Assembly (NCBI GenBank): GCA_023663805.1
Contig: JAMPGR010000002.1
Coordinates: 1 to 64,000, forward strand
From: Clostridium sp.
Lineage (GTDB): Bacteria; Bacteroidota; Bacteroidia; Bacteroidales; Muribaculaceae
DNA length: 64,000 nucleotides
Direction: 5' to 3'
Every line of letters starts with the position of its first letter. Position 1 is the first letter of the stretch. Position numbers and translations under genes: made by a program. This document shows, in pieces, positions 34,836 to 61,596 of the stretch. Under the pieces are notes generated by a model. It saw only the letters and a list, made by a program, of their open reading frames with translations, made no database searches and was not told where the DNA came from.

Positions 34836-37337
34836 ATGAGAACCGCCCGATTCATCATACCTTCGCTTCTCGCGTTCCTGCTGACCGGAACCGAAGCCGG
34901 GGCCCGTACGCTCGACCCCGCGGAAGCCTGGAGCCGCCTTGCCGAGACGAAATCCGCAATAACGTCGACCGTCGCCCGCGCTCCGGCGATGCGTCCCGAA
35001 CTGGTCTACACCGAAACTACTGCCGGCCAGCCGAGTGTCTATCTCTTCGCTGAACGACAGTCGGGAAGATACTTTTTAGTCGCTGCCGACGACTGCGCCG
35101 ACGCGCTGCTTGGCTACACCGACGCCGACACGCCTGTAGACCCCGACAATCTCCCGCCGAATTTCGAGGCATGGCTCGACGAAACAGGCCGTCAGATCTC
35201 GACTGCCGCTGCGGAGGGTAGAACGGTCGGTTCATCCCTGCCGACAGACCTTCTCGAATCGGTCGTGCCGATAATGACAACAAAGTGGAACCAGGATGCG
35301 CCCTACAACAACCGTTGCCCGAAGGTCGGCGACGCACGGAGTTACACGGGGTGTGTCGCGACGGCTGCTGCCCAGATTCTGAAGACCTATGAATACCCGA
35401 CCCGCGGAGAAGGCAGTTACAGTTACGATTGGAACGGTACCACACTCAGTTTCGACTACGACAAGACAACCTTCCACTGGTCTCAGATGACCGACACCTA
35501 CGACGAAACGTCGACGAACAACCAGAAAACCGCCGTCGCGACCCTGATGTACGCGATCGGCGTCGCTTCGAATATGAACTATTCCCCCTCGGCGAGCGGC
35601 GCGACGACAATCAACCTATGCCGCGCCCTGATACGCAACTTCGGCTACGACCGGTCGCTCAACATGAAGATGCGGAACTACTATCCGCTCGAACAGTGGC
35701 GCTCGATGCTCCACGACGAACTGTCGGCCGGGTATCCCGTCTACTACGAAGGCTCCGGAACCGGCACCCACGCCTTTGTTCTCGACGGATATGACGCCGA
35801 GACCGGATTCTTCCATGTCAACTGGGGATGGGGCGGGTCGAGCAACGGCTATTTCCAGATCACGACTCTCGAACCGGGATCGCAGGGGATCGGCGGAAGC
35901 ACCGCCGGATACAGCAACAGCCAGATCGCTGTTTTCAGCCTCCGTAAGCCTGTCGAAGGGTCCGAGCCGACTCCGTATCTCGTGCTGAACAACGACCTGA
36001 CGACCAACGAACCGGTTTATACACGCGACCGGAGCGTCACCCTCCTCGGCGGAGAGACAAACACCGGAATCTACAGTTACTCGGTCGAGTCGCTGAAATA
36101 TGAGTTCGGTCTCGAACTGACCGACGCGACCGGAAACATCTCCTATGTATGGTCGGTCTACGCCCCCCTCGGACTCGAAGCCTATTACGGCTACACAGGA
36201 CTCGATTTCAACGCCTCATCTTTCCCGGCCGAAGGGACTTATCGTGCAACGATGGTCATTCGCTGCAACGGCCGGATTGTTCCGGTTCCCGCGCCGCTCG
36301 GATGCGCCTCGGCGATGACTGTCGAATGCACGCCGGAGCGTCTGACTTTCACCCCGGTAACCAACCGGTCGGAAATAGCGGCGACCGACCCTGAATTCAT
36401 AACGCCTCTGTATGTCGGTAAAAGCGCGATAGCGACCGCGACAGTTTCGAACGCCGGGGCTGAATACTATGGAGAAATCAAACTCGGATTCGTCGCTCCG
36501 GGCGACACCCGCGCCGAAAATATCCTTCTGCTCTTCGAAAACACGGCGAGCATCGATATCCTCGGGGGAGAGACGGCCGAAGTCTCGCTCCGCGGTACAA
36601 TCCGCGGCCTTTCGGCAGGAGACTATCTCGCCGGAGTGTTCGACAACCGCCGGCAGTTGATTTCCGAACTGGTTCCCGTCCATATCAATCCCGAACCGCA
36701 GGGAGCGGCATCGGTTTCGATCGAGAGTATCAAGTTCCCCGACGCTCTCGGCGGAACAGGCACCCGCGAGGATCCTTATATCCTCTATCGCGACATCGTC
36801 GACTTCGACCTGACGATGCGTTGCAACAGCGGTTACTTCGACGACGGCGTGACGGCTTGGGTCTACAACCCGGGAATCGATTCGCCGATTCTCGGTATCA
36901 ACGGACGCTTCGATCCGTTCGACGCCGGACACAGCGAGACAATCCGTTTCTCCGGCGAGGTCTCGAAACTCGACGCCGGACACACCTATGTTTTCCTTAT
37001 CTATAACTCCACCCGGGGACAGTGGATCAACGCCTCGGGCTACTACTTCAGCCTCGTCGACCGGGCAACCGGAATCAGTTCCGTCGCCGAAGTCGCAGTC
37101 ACCCCCCGCCTTGTCGTGTCGCCGAACCCGGCGGCTGACTTCGCCGAGGTCTGGATGTCCGGCACCGGACTCCGAGACCTGACGCTCTACAATCTGACCG
37201 GAGCGCCCCTGCGGCATATCTCCTGCGACGGCTCGACTGCAACGATAGACCTGCGGGCTCTGCCGTCGGGCCACTATATCCTCCGGGCCTCGACATCAGA
37301 AGGCACTCCTCTGACAGCCCGCATAATAAAACGATAA
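34836..37337 (+). CDS. Secreted C10 (streptopain-type) cysteine peptidase with T9SS sorting domain
   Basis: 833 residues. Signal peptide (FIIPSLLAFLLTGTEAGA), propeptide to about 145 (FLVAADDCADALLGYTD), and the C10 catalytic domain: Cys173 in RSYTGCVATAAAQILK, His312 in GTHAFVLDGYDAETGF, and FHVNWGWGGSSNGYF. Then beta-sandwich regions (375-745) and a C-terminal T9SS type A domain of about 75 residues (VSPNPAADFAEVWM; LPSGHYILRAST; final RIIKR). Active-site residues are intact. It should be exported, matured by removal of the propeptide, and attached to the cell surface or released. Starts 35 bases after the DUF4230 gene; the STAND gene follows after 25 bases. Confidence 0.9.
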   Translation: MRTARFIIPSLLAFLLTGTEAGARTLDPAEAWSRLAETKSAITSTVARAPAMRPELVYTETTAGQPSVYLFAERQSGRYFLVAADDCADALLGYTDADTPVDPDNLPPNFEAWLDETGRQISTAAAEGRTVGSSLPTDLLESVVPIMTTKWNQDAPYNNRCPKVGDARSYTGCVATAAAQILKTYEYPTRGEGSYSYDWNGTTLSFDYDKTTFHWSQMTDTYDETSTNNQKTAVATLMYAIGVASNMNYSPSASGATTINLCRALIRNFGYDRSLNMKMRNYYPLEQWRSMLHDELSAGYPVYYEGSGTGTHAFVLDGYDAETGFFHVNWGWGGSSNGYFQITTLEPGSQGIGGSTAGYSNSQIAVFSLRKPVEGSEPTPYLVLNNDLTTNEPVYTRDRSVTLLGGETNTGIYSYSVESLKYEFGLELTDATGNISYVWSVYAPLGLEAYYGYTGLDFNASSFPAEGTYRATMVIRCNGRIVPVPAPLGCASAMTVECTPERLTFTPVTNRSEIAATDPEFITPLYVGKSAIATATVSNAGAEYYGEIKLGFVAPGDTRAENILLLFENTASIDILGGETAEVSLRGTIRGLSAGDYLAGVFDNRRQLISELVPVHINPEPQGAASVSIESIKFPDALGGTGTREDPYILYRDIVDFDLTMRCNSGYFDDGVTAWVYNPGIDSPILGINGRFDPFDAGHSETIRFSGEVSKLDAGHTYVFLIYNSTRGQWINASGYYFSLVDRATGISSVAEVAVTPRLVVSPNPAADFAEVWMSGTGLRDLTLYNLTGAPLRHISCDGSTATIDLRALPSGHYILRASTSEGTPLTARIIKR

Positions 37338-37362: not shown

Positions 37363-40300
37363 ATGAGAACCATCTCGATATTCCTCTCGTCGTCGCTCAA
37401 ACACCCCGACGAGCGCCAGGCCTTTCTCCGCGGCTTCAAAGCCGAGGAGACCGACGACCTGCGCTTCAACCTCTATATCCACGAAGAGAACGGCGTAATG
37501 GCCATCACCGTCGGATCCGACTCACAGGTGGCGATTAACGCCGCCGCGCTCGGATGCGACGCGTTCATACTCTTCGCCGGAGACAAAATCGGCGCCGCGA
37601 CAATCGAGGAGTTCAATCATGAAGTCTCCAGCGCCCGCTCGCTCTTCAAGTTCCTCTATGTCGTCCACCAGCCGGGAATCCTCCCCGACTCGGCCGACTC
37701 CTCGCGCTATGCCGACTATTTCGATGGATTCGAGCGTCCATATCTCGAAGGAACCCCGCTGAAACAGTATGCGACCAATCTGCGCCCCGTCCCCGAGGGC
37801 ATGACAGACCCCGAAGAACGGAAGAAATTCGTTCTCGACAATATCGAAGAGAAGGCCCGCGCAATCGCCCGCGAACTCCGCGGCAAGACGATCGCCGAAC
37901 TCTATCCCCCGATGCTCGAATACCGGAAAGTCATCTCCGACGGCCAGACAGAATACCGCGACGCGACCTCGTTCTACTACCGCCGCCAGATCGACGACGA
38001 CCTGGCCGTTGCGCTGGCCGGGGATGCGGGTGTGCCGCTGGTGCTCGTCAGCGGCACATCCCTGGCGGGAAAGACACGCGCCGTGACTGAGGCGATCCGG
38101 CAGATCGACGAGCCCGGGGTGCATGTCCACCTGATGCAGTATCACGCCGGCTCCGCCGCAGCGCTGCTCGACCTGAATCCCGAACTCCAGTTCCGACGGG
38201 AGTTCCGCAACATCTTCTTTATCGACGAGGTCGACCGTATCACCCGTAACCCCGAAGTGACCCACAAATTCATCGAAATATGCCGGCTGGCTGCCCGCGA
38301 CCCCCGGCGGCTGACAGTCGTCGCGACCTCGATACTCCCCGGGGAGGCGTTCCGCGAGCGCCTGCTCGACGAGGGGAGCGCCGACCGGTGGACCCGCCAG
38401 AGCCGCTACCTGACGATCCCGCCGCTATCAACCAAGGATATCCGCTTGCTGGTCGGGCGTCTGCGCCGCGCGGGGATAATCGGTCAGACAAACGGGCTGA
38501 AGATCGCCAACGGAATGCCCCTCGGCGCGATCTTCATCGACCTCGACAAGATGAGGAATCTCTACGAGACCGCCCTGAGGGAGTACTCCTGGATGGCGCG
38601 GCTGTCAGACGCGGTCAAGACCCTGTGGATATGGAAGGTCGAGTCGCGCGGCGACATATGGCAGTTGATTGACTTCTATAACAATGCCTATCCCGCCCCG
38701 CCGAGGCCGAAGCATCTGAAAAACGCCCCTGCCGCAGCGGAGCCAATCGATGCCGACCGTCTATGGGAGATGTTCCATCTGATTGCGGAGTTCGTCACGG
38801 TCGAAGGTGACGGCGACGATTTCTCCTTCTCGATTGAGGATATTCTCGTCGACGAGGTGTTCCGCTTCTCGAAGGGTAACGACGAGTTCAAGGCCATCAG
38901 GCGTATCGTCGACTATATTCGAGACAACCTGTCGAATCCGTTCGAGAACTATACCAAACTGCTGACGCGGCTCGCCACCCGCGGACGACAGAATCTGGCG
39001 GCCACAGCCGCCGGATATATTCTCGAGCTGTTCCCGATTGACCGAATTGTCAGCGAAGGTCTTCGCGAGGAGGAGCAGACTTTCGGGGATGTTCCTCTCG
39101 ACTGGGTTGCCAATTTTCTCGGCGCAATAGCAACCGTGAAGGCCGAGACCGGAGCGTTCGACGAGGTCCGCGACCTCTGGGAGCGTACGCGTCTCGACCA
39201 GGTACTTGAGCCTCTCCTGAAGATGGCCCGCCAGCGCGGAGATATTTCCGAAACCCTCCGGTATTTGCGCAATCGCGACAGCCTGTTAGAGCAGCATTTC
39301 GCTGCGACAGCAAACTACCGGCTTATTAACGAAATCGCTACTGCGCTCCCCTTCTCCCAGGCTCTCCAGATTATCGGAAGCATTGACTTCCGGAGGGTGG
39401 CAGATTGTAATTCTGTCACAGATGACTCGAAGTCCGACGAAGAGAACCAGTTCTACATAGCCAGACGCCATAAAACCTTCGCCGGATGGACAATCCGCCA
39501 GCTCGTCTCGAGGGTCCAGACAACCGGCGAATTCGACCGGGTCATATCGCTGGCCGACGAAATGAACCGGAAGTACAGCAACGCGCTCTTCGGTTCGAAG
39601 GCCGAACTCTACTTCGACATAATCGGCAAGGGAACCTGGAAGACAATCGCCGGACGACTGCCGTCATCGGCGCTTCTGGCTCTTTTCCGCGAACTCCGGA
39701 GTTCCGATCGCGATGCCGGATCGGAGTTCGACCGGGAAAACTATATGATCCAGAAGTCTGCGTGTCTGAACGCCCTGATGAACAAGATGGAAGAGGTCGA
39801 CGCCCGCGTGGCATGGGATGAACTCGGACCGCTCCAGGATTCCTTCTCTCTCAGGAGTATCGTCGATAAATCATGCGACTTTCCCCAGGCAAAAGGAATT
39901 ATCGACACCTTTCTCGAGAGCGAACAAGGGAAAGATACGGTTCTGAACCGTGAAGTTCTGAATACGCTTCTCGGACGATGCTCGACAGAGAAAGACCGTC
40001 TGGAATGCACCGAAATTTACCGCCGATACGGAAAGATAAGGCCTGGTGAAGACCTTTTCTCGATTCCCGACCCATATCTACAGGGGACGATTGTCAATTT
40101 GGATTTCGTTTCATTCCATACAAAGACAGAAATACTCCGCCGCCACCGTCCGGCCGATCCCGAATCGGTCAGACCTCAGCCAACCTATGTACCGATAGTC
40201 AAATTCGTCGATGGATTCGATTCGACCCGCGATCTGATTTTCTCAGACACATGCCCGTCGTTCCTGACTCCGGCCGAACAACGCGAACTTCGCTACAACC

Positions 40301-41904
40301 CAATCGCTATCTCGAATCTTTTCGACAAGGCAAGGACTCCGGATGAAAGAATCAGCGCATTATCGCTGCTCGACCGCCTTTTCGAGCAGGAAGATCCCGG
40401 CGAACCTTTACTGTCGAACGTCGAGAACCACATCGTAACGAAGATAATCCAAAACCGGACAATCTTCCCGACAATCACAGAAGTGCAGCAATTCGTCGGC
40501 CGTCTGACATCCACCTTCCCGACCTTTTCGCTCGAAGGCTTTCCGGAATTTGCACTGATGGAACGTATCGTCGACGAACCGGAGTTGGCAAATCGACCCG
40601 AAACTGTCGAAATGATTAACCGCCTGGTTATCCGAAATGCCGGAGGGAGTCTCGAAAGAGCGCGGCGTGCTGTTAAAATCAGAATCATGGCCTGCGGCAA
40701 CAACTCTCCTTCAGGCTGGGTCCGGGACGAAAGCAAATCAGATTTCCCACTCTTCAACGACGATGGGGAACTGACCGTCATGACAACCACGCCCCGGCGC
40801 TTCGCCCGCAATATGCTGGACCACGCTCTGCTCCATCCCTACCACCTCGAAAATCTTCTGACCGACGCCCTCGAGAATTCCGATAATCCTGCGCAAGCGA
40901 TCCGCGATATCGTCGACAAAGCTTTCCGGACGAAGACCTATATCGACCACAAACGGTTTATCAAACTTCGTAAGAGTTTTGACAAACAGGGACTTCGCAA
41001 CACGAATATATACCTAATTGCGAAAAACTATTCCATAATCAAGGATATCGCTCTCCGGCTCCATGCCGATGAGATAACCGTCGCTGAGGCTGAAGAGGAA
41101 ATAGATGTCTACGAGAAGATGAACAGAATACGTGTACACCGTACGAACCGATTCTGGGACGCGGTTATAAAGCGTATGACGAATGACCGGAATGAGTCGG
41201 TCGATTCAATCCTCCGGTTCATCGACTCGCTCCCCGACTACCGTCTCGACAACGAGCGCCGCTATTTTCTTCTTCATGCCGTCAGATCCCTTTCAGACTA
41301 CGGGACGCTGTCACATCTGTTCGGCAATATGACAAGCATGGAACTCCAGGCGCTGATGAAGGCTATGGGGAAATGCGAGCCGAAAGTGCGCCATCAGATT
41401 ATGGAACGCGTCATGCCGGTTCTCGATTCGAAGGCCGACGATTCGGCGGCGGTCGGCGACGATGTCCTGATGGGGCTGCTCAGATACCGTCGCGGGGCGT
41501 CGGTCGATTCGAGCCTGGAGTATTTCGCCCTCCACGGCCGCGGACTTTCCGACAGCACTGCCTTTGGCAATCTGCTCGAGCAGATCGCCTCGACGACCGA
41601 CTACGACAAAGCCGTCGCAAGTTATACAGGCGGCAATCTCGAACCGAAGCACCTGAAAATGATTTTCCGCAGTATGATTATCTACCCCGACTTCGTCGTC
41701 AACGGTCTTCTGTTTGAGAAATTCAACAACCGCCGCTATATCGATCTCTGGCGCCCGGTCGCCGAAAAAGACTCTAAGGGCCTGGTCCGCGAGACCTACG
41801 ACAAGTTCATCAAGACCATCAAACACCGCGAGAAAGCCTATGGGCAACCACGCGACTACCAGACCAGGCGCTTCATCGCCTTCTGGCGCCAGATCCTGAA
41901 GTAA
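37363..41904 (+). CDS. Giant DUF4062/TIR-like - STAND NTPase - helical solenoid protein
   Basis: 1513 residues, cytoplasmic (no signal or membrane segment). N-terminal domain about 1-165: TISIFLSSSLKHPDERQAFL and GCDAFILFAGDKIGAATIEE resemble DUF4062/TIR-type folds at the head of immune NTPases. NTPase core about 205-400: Walker A GTSLAGKTRAV (231-241), Walker B NIFFIDEVDRIT (283-294), sensor strand LTVVATSILPG, and IPPLSTKDIRLLVGRLRRAG as in STAND proteins. The remaining 1100 residues are helical, with solenoid-like pairs recalling PPR/TPR repeats (CLNALMNKMEEVDARVAWDE; RFWDAVIKRMTNDRNESVDS). This is the plan of Avs- or NLR-like sensors, but I know no described family with this exact tail. 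GC content is host-like. Confidence 0.8.
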   Translation: MRTISIFLSSSLKHPDERQAFLRGFKAEETDDLRFNLYIHEENGVMAITVGSDSQVAINAAALGCDAFILFAGDKIGAATIEEFNHEVSSARSLFKFLYVVHQPGILPDSADSSRYADYFDGFERPYLEGTPLKQYATNLRPVPEGMTDPEERKKFVLDNIEEKARAIARELRGKTIAELYPPMLEYRKVISDGQTEYRDATSFYYRRQIDDDLAVALAGDAGVPLVLVSGTSLAGKTRAVTEAIRQIDEPGVHVHLMQYHAGSAAALLDLNPELQFRREFRNIFFIDEVDRITRNPEVTHKFIEICRLAARDPRRLTVVATSILPGEAFRERLLDEGSADRWTRQSRYLTIPPLSTKDIRLLVGRLRRAGIIGQTNGLKIANGMPLGAIFIDLDKMRNLYETALREYSWMARLSDAVKTLWIWKVESRGDIWQLIDFYNNAYPAPPRPKHLKNAPAAAEPIDADRLWEMFHLIAEFVTVEGDGDDFSFSIEDILVDEVFRFSKGNDEFKAIRRIVDYIRDNLSNPFENYTKLLTRLATRGRQNLAATAAGYILELFPIDRIVSEGLREEEQTFGDVPLDWVANFLGAIATVKAETGAFDEVRDLWERTRLDQVLEPLLKMARQRGDISETLRYLRNRDSLLEQHFAATANYRLINEIATALPFSQALQIIGSIDFRRVADCNSVTDDSKSDEENQFYIARRHKTFAGWTIRQLVSRVQTTGEFDRVISLADEMNRKYSNALFGSKAELYFDIIGKGTWKTIAGRLPSSALLALFRELRSSDRDAGSEFDRENYMIQKSACLNALMNKMEEVDARVAWDELGPLQDSFSLRSIVDKSCDFPQAKGIIDTFLESEQGKDTVLNREVLNTLLGRCSTEKDRLECTEIYRRYGKIRPGEDLFSIPDPYLQGTIVNLDFVSFHTKTEILRRHRPADPESVRPQPTYVPIVKFVDGFDSTRDLIFSDTCPSFLTPAEQRELRYNPIAISNLFDKARTPDERISALSLLDRLFEQEDPGEPLLSNVENHIVTKIIQNRTIFPTITEVQQFVGRLTSTFPTFSLEGFPEFALMERIVDEPELANRPETVEMINRLVIRNAGGSLERARRAVKIRIMACGNNSPSGWVRDESKSDFPLFNDDGELTVMTTTPRRFARNMLDHALLHPYHLENLLTDALENSDNPAQAIRDIVDKAFRTKTYIDHKRFIKLRKSFDKQGLRNTNIYLIAKNYSIIKDIALRLHADEITVAEAEEEIDVYEKMNRIRVHRTNRFWDAVIKRMTNDRNESVDSILRFIDSLPDYRLDNERRYFLLHAVRSLSDYGTLSHLFGNMTSMELQALMKAMGKCEPKVRHQIMERVMPVLDSKADDSAAVGDDVLMGLLRYRRGASVDSSLEYFALHGRGLSDSTAFGNLLEQIASTTDYDKAVASYTGGNLEPKHLKMIFRSMIIYPDFVVNGLLFEKFNNRRYIDLWRPVAEKDSKGLVRETYDKFIKTIKHREKAYGQPRDYQTRRFIAFWRQILK

Positions 41905-42290
41905 CCGGTCTCCCGCCCCCCCTATCAGCCCCCCGACCCCCTGATGGGAGAGTTGCCATATTGCTGATAATCCATAGGGGGACGCGCTTATGCGGTCCGC
42001 CTATGCGGTCTATATTCCGCTGCTACACACCACGTTAGCGGTGTCAAGACAGTAGCCGTGGGCAAAGCCCACGGCTTTCATACCGATATGATTCAGACCA
42101 CGTTAGTGGTCGAATAACAACACACATAGCGCATGTCTGTGTAGAACGAGGTTGTTTCCGACCGCAGTGGGAACCCACGCCTGGCGCAGACGCGGGCGGG
42201 GACGCCCGCTAACTACTTCGATACCGAGCGCCCCTCAACAGTTCCAGCAACGGATCATCATATCGGTTTACTACTGACCAATCACCACCT
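41905..42290. repeat. Intergenic block of palindromic elements (copy A)
   Basis: 386 bases without a gene. Contains ACACC/GGTGT (42027-42044), the 10-base stem AGCCGTGGGC/GCCCACGGCT (42054-42076), GACCACGTTAGTGGTC (42096-42111), and later GGACGCCCGCTAACTACTTC near 42200-42219. The same motifs, in the same order and spacing, recur at 52667-52808. It follows the STAND gene's stop and precedes the convergent AI-2E-type permease gene; individual hairpins could act in termination, but no T run follows them. Confidence 0.85.
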
Positions 42291-52561: not shown

Positions 52562-52808
52562 GTTATTCGACCACTAACGTGGTCTGAACCAGTGGGAAAA
52601 CCGGACCATGGGCTTCGTCCACGGCTACTCTGTTTTGACCGCTACGCGGTCCATATTAGGCTTGGACACACCACGATAGTGGTGTCGAGACGGTAGCCGT
52701 GGGCGAAGCCCACGGTCCACCCAATGATATTATTCAGACCACGTTAGTGGTCTAATAATGCCATACACATACGTAGCAATTTGGACGCCCGCCAACTACT
52801 TCGATACC
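52562..52808. repeat. Intergenic block of palindromic elements (copy B, two units in inverted orientation)
   Basis: Left unit, inverted: ATTCGACCACTAACGTGGTC at 52565-52584, then an imperfect CCATGGGC/GTCCACGG hairpin and GACCGCTACGCGGTC. Right unit, same orientation as copy A: ACACCACGATAGTGGTGT (52668-52685), GCCGTGGGCGAAGCCCACGG (52696-52715), GACCACGTTAGTGGTC (52737-52752) and GGACGCCCGCCAACTACTTC (52783-52802). Fills most of the 294 bases between the AraC gene and menE. Confidence 0.88.
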
Positions 52809-61568: not shown

Positions 61569-61596
61569 ATTATTCGACCACTAACGTGGTCTGAAT
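61569..61596. repeat. Single palindromic element (copy C) overlapping the end of plsC
   Basis: ATTCGACCACTAACGTGGTC at 61572-61591, identical to the left unit of copy B. The plsC stop codon (complement of 61581-61583) lies in its centre. Confidence 0.88.

What the first reader, a model, noticed from the sequence alone, without database searches (positions are those of the whole stretch)
37363..41904. 1513-residue DUF4062/TIR-like - STAND NTPase - solenoid protein, candidate immune sensor
One gene encodes a signalling-type N-terminal domain, an intact P-loop NTPase (GTSLAGKT, FFIDEVD) with STAND features, and about 1100 residues of helical solenoid with PPR/TPR-like periodicity. This is the architecture of Avs and bacterial NLR-like antiphage sensors: solenoid recognises, NTPase oligomerises, head domain acts. 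I do not recognise the solenoid as that of a described Avs family. The gene is host-like in GC and stands without a mobile element, so it may be a long-resident guard or regulator.
Basis: partly seen in the sequence, partly recalled or inferred. Interest (0 to 1): 0.8.

Follow-up and report, generated by a model that had tools for sequence, protein, structure and literature searches.

The report
NADase-headed STAND sensor with PPR-type solenoid
A gut-type Bacteroidota bacterium carries one large stand-alone gene that looks like a bacterial counterpart of plant and animal immune receptors: a head expected to destroy the cofactor NAD+, a switch motor, and a long helical sensor arm of a type (PPR) best known from plant organelles, probably used to stop phage infection.

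Summary
The gene is real and was read correctly: an intact 1513-aa frame at 37363-41904(+). Residues 1-105 belong to the DUF4062/TIR-like superfamily, reached through intermediates, and keep its catalytic-type Glu (E83) in all 19 heads aligned. Residues ~200-415 are an AAA+/STAND NTPase. The rest is an alpha-solenoid; residues ~775-1217 match pentatricopeptide-repeat (PPR) structures best, and a family profile finds two PPR units at 826-890. The same NTPase subfamily sits under a trypsin head with true PPRs elsewhere. Full-length relatives (27-29% identity) occur in 2 of 397 sampled family genomes, alone among different housekeeping genes, with a decayed remnant in a third. So it is an accessory, fast-evolving, single-gene immune-like sensor. 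Best reading: the solenoid senses a phage product, the NTPase assembles, the head hydrolyses NAD+. It works like Avs5 and Swarozyc but is neither: no SIR2 head, no portal-binding AUX domain. The combination DUF4062 + nSTAND3-like NTPase + PPR was not found described in the papers held. Antiphage and NADase activity are inferred, not shown. 'Long-resident guard' is not supported.

The parts
37363..41904 (+). whole gene, 1513 aa, single-gene STAND sensor candidate
   Evidence: open frame and full-length relatives
37363..37677 (+). residues 1-105: DUF4062/TIR-like head (predicted NADase effector)
   Evidence: hhalign 98% to a class of small DUF4062-like proteins that itself matches Pfam-validated DUF4062 at 97%; negative controls 0.1-0.2%; alternating strand/helix topology in the model
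37609..37611 (+). codon of E83, position of the TIR/DUF4062 catalytic glutamate
   Evidence: invariant in 19 of 19 heads aligned; catalytic role of the corresponding Glu from PMC13174449
38053..38076 (+). Walker A, GTSLAGKT, residues 231-238
   Evidence: sequence; G231, S233, L234, G236, K237 and T238 invariant
38215..38235 (+). Walker B, FFIDEVD, residues 285-291
   Evidence: sequence; I287, D288 and E289 invariant in the three full-length relatives
37963..38607 (+). residues ~201-415: STAND/AAA+ NTPase, nSTAND3-like subfamily
   Evidence: Foldseek/VIA to ORC/Cdc6-type AAA+ (Z up to 13.7); hhalign 99.1% to NTPases of L019, L111 and L112, against 2.4% to NB-ARC
38512..38544 (+). GMPLGAIFIDL, residues 384-394, STAND-type G-x-P followed by a subfamily motif
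   Evidence: shared in part with L017, L019, L111 and L112 NTPases
38830..39672 (+). residues ~490-770: first alpha-solenoid segment (HEAT/importin-like at best)
   Evidence: AlphaFold2 model, mostly pLDDT 55-88; VIA Z up to 9.4 to CRM1
39685..41013 (+). residues ~775-1217: PPR-type solenoid, presumed ligand sensor
   Evidence: VIA top four rows are PPR structures, Z 14.3, 14.3, 12.7, 12.1; next class 9.4
39838..40032 (+). residues 826-890: two PPR-like units recognised by profile
   Evidence: hhalign score 28.9 against at most 17.3 in 100 column shuffles
41053..41901 (+). residues 1231-1513: poorly conserved, length-variable C-terminal part
   Evidence: 22-23% identity to relatives; insertions in relatives

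Best explanation
A single-gene, accessory, immune-type STAND sensor, probably spread by horizontal transfer. Shown here: the anatomy (DUF4062/TIR-like head with the conserved Glu, nSTAND3-like NTPase, PPR-type alpha-solenoid) and the sporadic, fast-diverging distribution. Inferred: at rest the solenoid folds back on the NTPase; a phage-made ligand, most likely a protein, binds the solenoid; ATP-dependent assembly brings the heads together; [quoted passage not shown]
For: Head: transitive profile match to DUF4062 and invariant E83; DUF4062 proteins are NADases and antiphage effectors needing that Glu (PMC13174449). NTPase: intact Walker A and B, AAA+/STAND fold, 99% profile match to NTPases with swapped heads: trypsin plus a Trypco1 neighbour in L019, a known conflict-system pairing (PMC7159879). 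Sensor: PPR structures rank first, the family profile hits PPR units, and the more distant same-head relative L017 has a significant PPR match (E 1.1e-5). Avs5 has the same logic: NADase head, nSTAND3, helical repeats including PPR (PMC12931631). Distribution: 3 of 397 family genomes carry it full-length and one more holds a remnant, different neighbours each time, 27-29% identity while a RelA/SpoT-type protein keeps 61-62% in the same genomes.
Against: No phage, NADase or binding experiment. The gene does not lie in a defence island (one search finds no PADLOC hit in ten nearby genes). The head is not called directly by Pfam DUF4062 and its direct profile match is moderate (74%). Of the human proteins with DUF4062 next to a NACHT, NWD1, NWD2 and NPHP3 showed no NADase activity in PMC13174449 (only TEP1 did), so the fold does not guarantee activity. 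The head plus NTPase model is of moderate confidence (pLDDT 65), and the head was not tested alone.
Confidence: 0.66

Rival explanations
1. A STAND signalling regulator or stress sensor of the cell's own physiology rather than an antiphage system: the same architecture senses an internal ligand and adjusts NAD+ or forms a scaffold.
For: Stand-alone among housekeeping genes, no defence neighbours; eukaryotic relatives with DUF4062 next to NACHT (NPHP3, NWD1) are not known as antiviral effectors (own knowledge).
Against: Absent from nearly all close relatives and fast-diverging, with a decayed copy in one; head swapping with a protease in the same NTPase subfamily is typical of conflict systems, not of core regulation.
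Confidence: 0.2
2. PPR solenoid as an RNA sensor: the arm binds phage or damaged RNA and triggers the NADase head.
For: Best fold match is PPR bound to RNA (designed PPRs and PPR10); related STAND proteins have PPR units with T/N/S and N/D at the positions that read bases in plants (L111).
Against: In the window protein the repeats are degenerate: it has no PPR hit of its own, and the base-reading positions are mostly non-polar or not conserved, by eye; PMC12931631 found a phage protein as trigger of Avs5.
Confidence: 0.08
3. A degenerate or inactive copy kept by chance.
For: A truncated remnant exists in one same-genus genome (G031, L009); the window gene is rare.
Against: Intact 1513-codon frame with Walker A and B, E83 and other invariant residues kept; GC3 0.70 against 0.71-0.81 in five neighbouring genes.
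Confidence: 0.06

Closest known systems
Avs5 (AVAST type 5), e.g. PaAvs5-1/2/3 (PMC12931631)
   Same: One protein: NAD+-hydrolysing head, nSTAND3-type NTPase, C-terminal helical repeats (TPR/Sel1 or, in PaAvs5-3, PPR).
   Different: Head is DUF4062/TIR-like, not SIR2; no PADLOC hit at all at E up to 10; a solenoid of about 1000 aa; nSTAND3 only reached through relatives, not called by Pfam in the window protein.
Swarozyc (DUF4062 antiphage NADase, PMC13174449)
   Same: N-terminal DUF4062/TIR-like domain with the conserved catalytic Glu; single gene; patchy distribution.
   Different: KpSwz senses the phage portal through a winged-helix AUX domain on helical stalks; here an NTPase and a PPR-type solenoid take that place.
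DUF4062-NACHT proteins TEP1, NWD1, NWD2, NPHP3 (eukaryotes) and large DUF4062 proteins of Bacteroidota (L063-L068)
   Same: DUF4062 head followed by a P-loop NTPase (eukaryotic members) and repeats.
   Different: NTPase of the NACHT class and WD40/TPR repeats in the eukaryotic proteins; the NTPase here is nearer nSTAND3 and the repeats are PPR-type.
PADLOC candidate PDC-S60 (DUF4062-like head plus NB-ARC-type STAND, e.g. L035)
   Same: Same class of head by profile.
   Different: L035 has an NB-ARC-type NTPase and weak TPR; the window protein itself gives no PDC-S60 hit.

Membership tests
Avs5 | SIR2-type NADase head | tested here: not met
   head matches DUF4062/TIR-like profiles; no SIR2 family in Pfam, NCBIfam or PADLOC scans
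Avs5 | nSTAND3 NTPase (PF20720) | tested here: inconclusive
   no Pfam call in the window protein; 99.1% profile match to L019/L111/L112 NTPases, of which L019 scores 26.5 bits against a cut-off of 27.2
Avs5 | C-terminal helical repeat sensor (TPR/Sel1/PPR) | tested here: met
   alpha-solenoid with PPR as best fold; sensing itself not tested
Avs5 | protection against phage with NAD+ loss | not testable with these tools
   needs a phage challenge
Swarozyc | DUF4062/TIR-like domain | tested here: met
   transitive profile match 98% then 97%, direct 74%; not called by Pfam's own model in this protein
Swarozyc | conserved catalytic Glu | tested here: met
   E83, 19 of 19 heads aligned
Swarozyc | winged-helix AUX domain binding the phage portal | tested here: not met
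   the head is followed by an NTPase and a long solenoid, not a short HTH/winged domain
STAND NTPases | P-loop NTPase with Walker A and B and AAA+/STAND fold, G-x-P motif | tested here: met
   GTSLAGKT, FFIDEVD, GMP 384-386; AAA+ fold matches
STAND NTPases | ligand-driven oligomerisation | not testable with these tools
   needs biochemistry
PPR proteins | PPR fold | tested here: met
   top four VIA rows are PPR, Z 12.1-14.3, next class 9.4; the tool warns that helical repeats can reach 13-14 by common arrangement
PPR proteins | recognisable PPR motif in the sequence | tested here: inconclusive
   none in the window sequence alone; family profile 826-890 above all 100 shuffles
PPR proteins | base-reading residues (positions 5 and last) | tested here: inconclusive
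   by eye: mostly absent; one unit keeps N (N867) in all three relatives

The most novel reading that the evidence does not exclude
A bacterial NLR-like receptor in which a PPR solenoid reads RNA and switches on a TIR-like NADase, i.e. an RNA-sensing abortive-infection receptor built from the plant-organelle RNA-binding fold.
Probability: 0.08. Interest if true: 0.88.

Novelty: new variant of a known kind. Interest (0 to 1): 0.55.

Why it matters
It joins two recent findings that were made apart: DUF4062 as a TIR-like NADase (Swarozyc, TEP1) and PPR-bearing nSTAND3 sensors (an Avs5 clade). It shows a related NTPase-plus-PPR module under different heads (TIR-like, trypsin), which argues for PPR as a regular sensor arm in bacterial immunity, and it makes a direct test possible: does a PPR arm of bacterial NLR-like proteins read protein or RNA? 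It is also a natural bacterial model of the DUF4062-NTPase layout of human TEP1.

Tried and rejected
Direct family calls: none at a curated cut-off from Pfam, NCBIfam or PADLOC on the window protein; PDB sequences gave only two chance-level hits, E 0.15 and 0.2. Relatives in viral contigs, phages and plasmids: none, so a prophage or plasmid origin was not shown. Empty-site comparison: the AI-2E transporter was found in 34 of 34 same-genus genomes, but in the ten loci inspected none of the other window flanking genes tested lay beside it, so no clean empty site could be defined. Weak family hits in G064 and G203 are taken as chance: their loci hold a glycosyltransferase and neighbours, and a Lon-type protease. 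A metabolic role of the head (nucleoside deoxyribosyltransferase-like) was considered; the DUF4062 intermediates and the STAND context speak for the TIR-like effector reading. VIA-align rows for the head were dominated by the NTPase, so the head was not tested alone by structure. Plant-type RNA reading by the window's PPR part was considered and judged unlikely.

Full report
Observation. The frame 37363-41904(+) is open for 1513 codons with an ATG start. Two full-length relatives, in G122 (L007:7376-12325:-, 1650 aa) and G263 (L008:3592-8190:-, 1533 aa), align from M-R-x-I to the end at 27-29% identity. The start is thus supported, and conservation over the whole length shows a real protein. 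The upstream gene, a C10 peptidase with Spi inhibitor domain, ends 25 bp before it. The relatives have other genes there (FKBP-type isomerase in G122, an outer-membrane-type protein in G263, named by eye), so no partner gene is conserved.

Head. No library names it at its cut-off. A profile of the head plus NTPase of four relatives (A2) found in Bacteroidota a class of small DUF4062-like proteins (L025-L043), several of which give weak Pfam DUF4062/NPHP3/TIR_2 hits; L025 and the L035 fusion give PADLOC PDC-S60 hits of 1e-9 and 5e-10. hhalign: window-family heads to this class 98%; this class to Pfam-validated DUF4062 97%; window-family heads directly 74%. Controls against NTPase and PPR profiles gave 0.1-0.2%. 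In an alignment of 19 heads, F7, S10, R18, Q55, G77, T80 and E83 never vary. E83 sits in 'T-x-E-E-F', where DUF4062/TIR place the catalytic Glu. The AlphaFold2 model of residues 1-446 (pLDDT 65) has the alternating strand/helix order expected of a TIR-like fold; the head was not tested alone. A 2026 preprint shows DUF4062 to be a TIR-like NADase that protects against phages and needs that Glu (PMC13174449).

NTPase. Walker A, Walker B and a G-M-P-[LI]-G-A-[IL]-F-[IV]-D-L motif are kept in the three full-length relatives. Foldseek and VIA-align give AAA+/ORC-type folds, Z up to 13.7. Profile comparison ties it to NTPases in L019, L111 and L112 (99.1%) and not to NB-ARC (2.4%). L019 is Trypsin_2 + NTPase (nSTAND3 26.5 bits, cut-off 27.2) + PPR, with a Trypco1 gene beside it, a pairing described for conflict systems (PMC7159879). 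L111 (G935) is NTPase + seven PPRs. L112 is NTPase with a hydrophobic N-terminus, and TPR in the overlapping loci L030 and L033 of this group.

Solenoid. AlphaFold2 on residues 416-1513 gives an almost all-helical solenoid, pLDDT mostly 70-90 between residues ~505 and 1265. VIA-align puts PPR structures in the first four places, Z 14.3, 14.3, 12.7 and 12.1, over residues ~775-1217 for the two best; the next class stands at 9.4. Foldseek ranks PPR10 fifth and sixth, with low TM-scores. A PPR profile made only from other Bacteroidota proteins hits the family alignment at 826-890 with score 28.9, against a maximum of 17.3 in 100 column shuffles; the window sequence alone has no significant hit, while the more distant same-head relative L017 has one (E 1.1e-5). 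So the arm is PPR-type but degenerate. In Bacteroidota PPRs are rare (3 of 198 genomes over the cut-off); of those three, one is fused to a STAND NTPase, one to a nucleotide-cyclase-like domain and one is PPR alone.

Distribution. Full-length in 3 of 397 sampled genomes of the family (own, G122, G263), with a remnant lacking the first ~917 residues next to rodA in G031; no match in viral contigs, phages and plasmids. The AI-2E neighbour was found in 34 of 34 same-genus genomes. Identity of 27-29% contrasts with 61-62% for a RelA/SpoT-type protein in G122 and G263. In the window protein's comparisons the head and NTPase are more conserved (30-39%) than residues 1001-1513 (21-23%), the pattern of a diverging sensor arm. 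GC3 is 0.698, against 0.712-0.81 in five neighbouring genes. No PADLOC hit in ten nearby genes.

Mechanism. Shown: anatomy, conserved active-site-type residues, sporadic distribution. Inferred from the characterised relatives: ligand on the solenoid, NTP-dependent assembly, NAD+ hydrolysis, abortive infection. It works like Avs5 (NADase head, nSTAND3, repeats including PPR; PMC12931631) with the executioner of Swarozyc, but is a member of neither by their defining features.

Noticed in passing
window 42030-42042, 42098-42110, 52570-52582, 52671-52683, 52739-52751, 61577-61589: Repeated element CCACGTTAGYGGT, 6 copies with up to 1 mismatch, mean 0.07 expected by chance; a perfect hairpin AGCCGTGGGC/GCCCACGGCT lies at 42054-42076 between two copies. 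Looks like a dispersed intergenic repeat family.
   Followed up: partly
L111:5006-7087 (G935): Open frame with a STAND NTPase and seven near-perfect 32-residue PPRs (VTYxTLI...), with T/S/N and N/D at the base-reading-type positions.
   Followed up: partly
L141:868-3150 (G847): A nucleotide-cyclase-like domain fused to about eleven almost identical 32-residue PPRs in a bacterium.
   Followed up: no
L064-L068 (G045): Six Pfam-called DUF4062 places in one same-family genome; large DUF4062 proteins of ~950-1580 aa at five of them, each between unrelated housekeeping genes.
   Followed up: no
L009:8878-10592: Truncated remnant of the gene next to rodA/mrdA in a same-genus genome.
   Followed up: yes
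   Followed up: no
window 34836-37337: C10 (streptopain-type) peptidase with Spi inhibitor domain and a weak Por secretion tail directly upstream.
   Followed up: no
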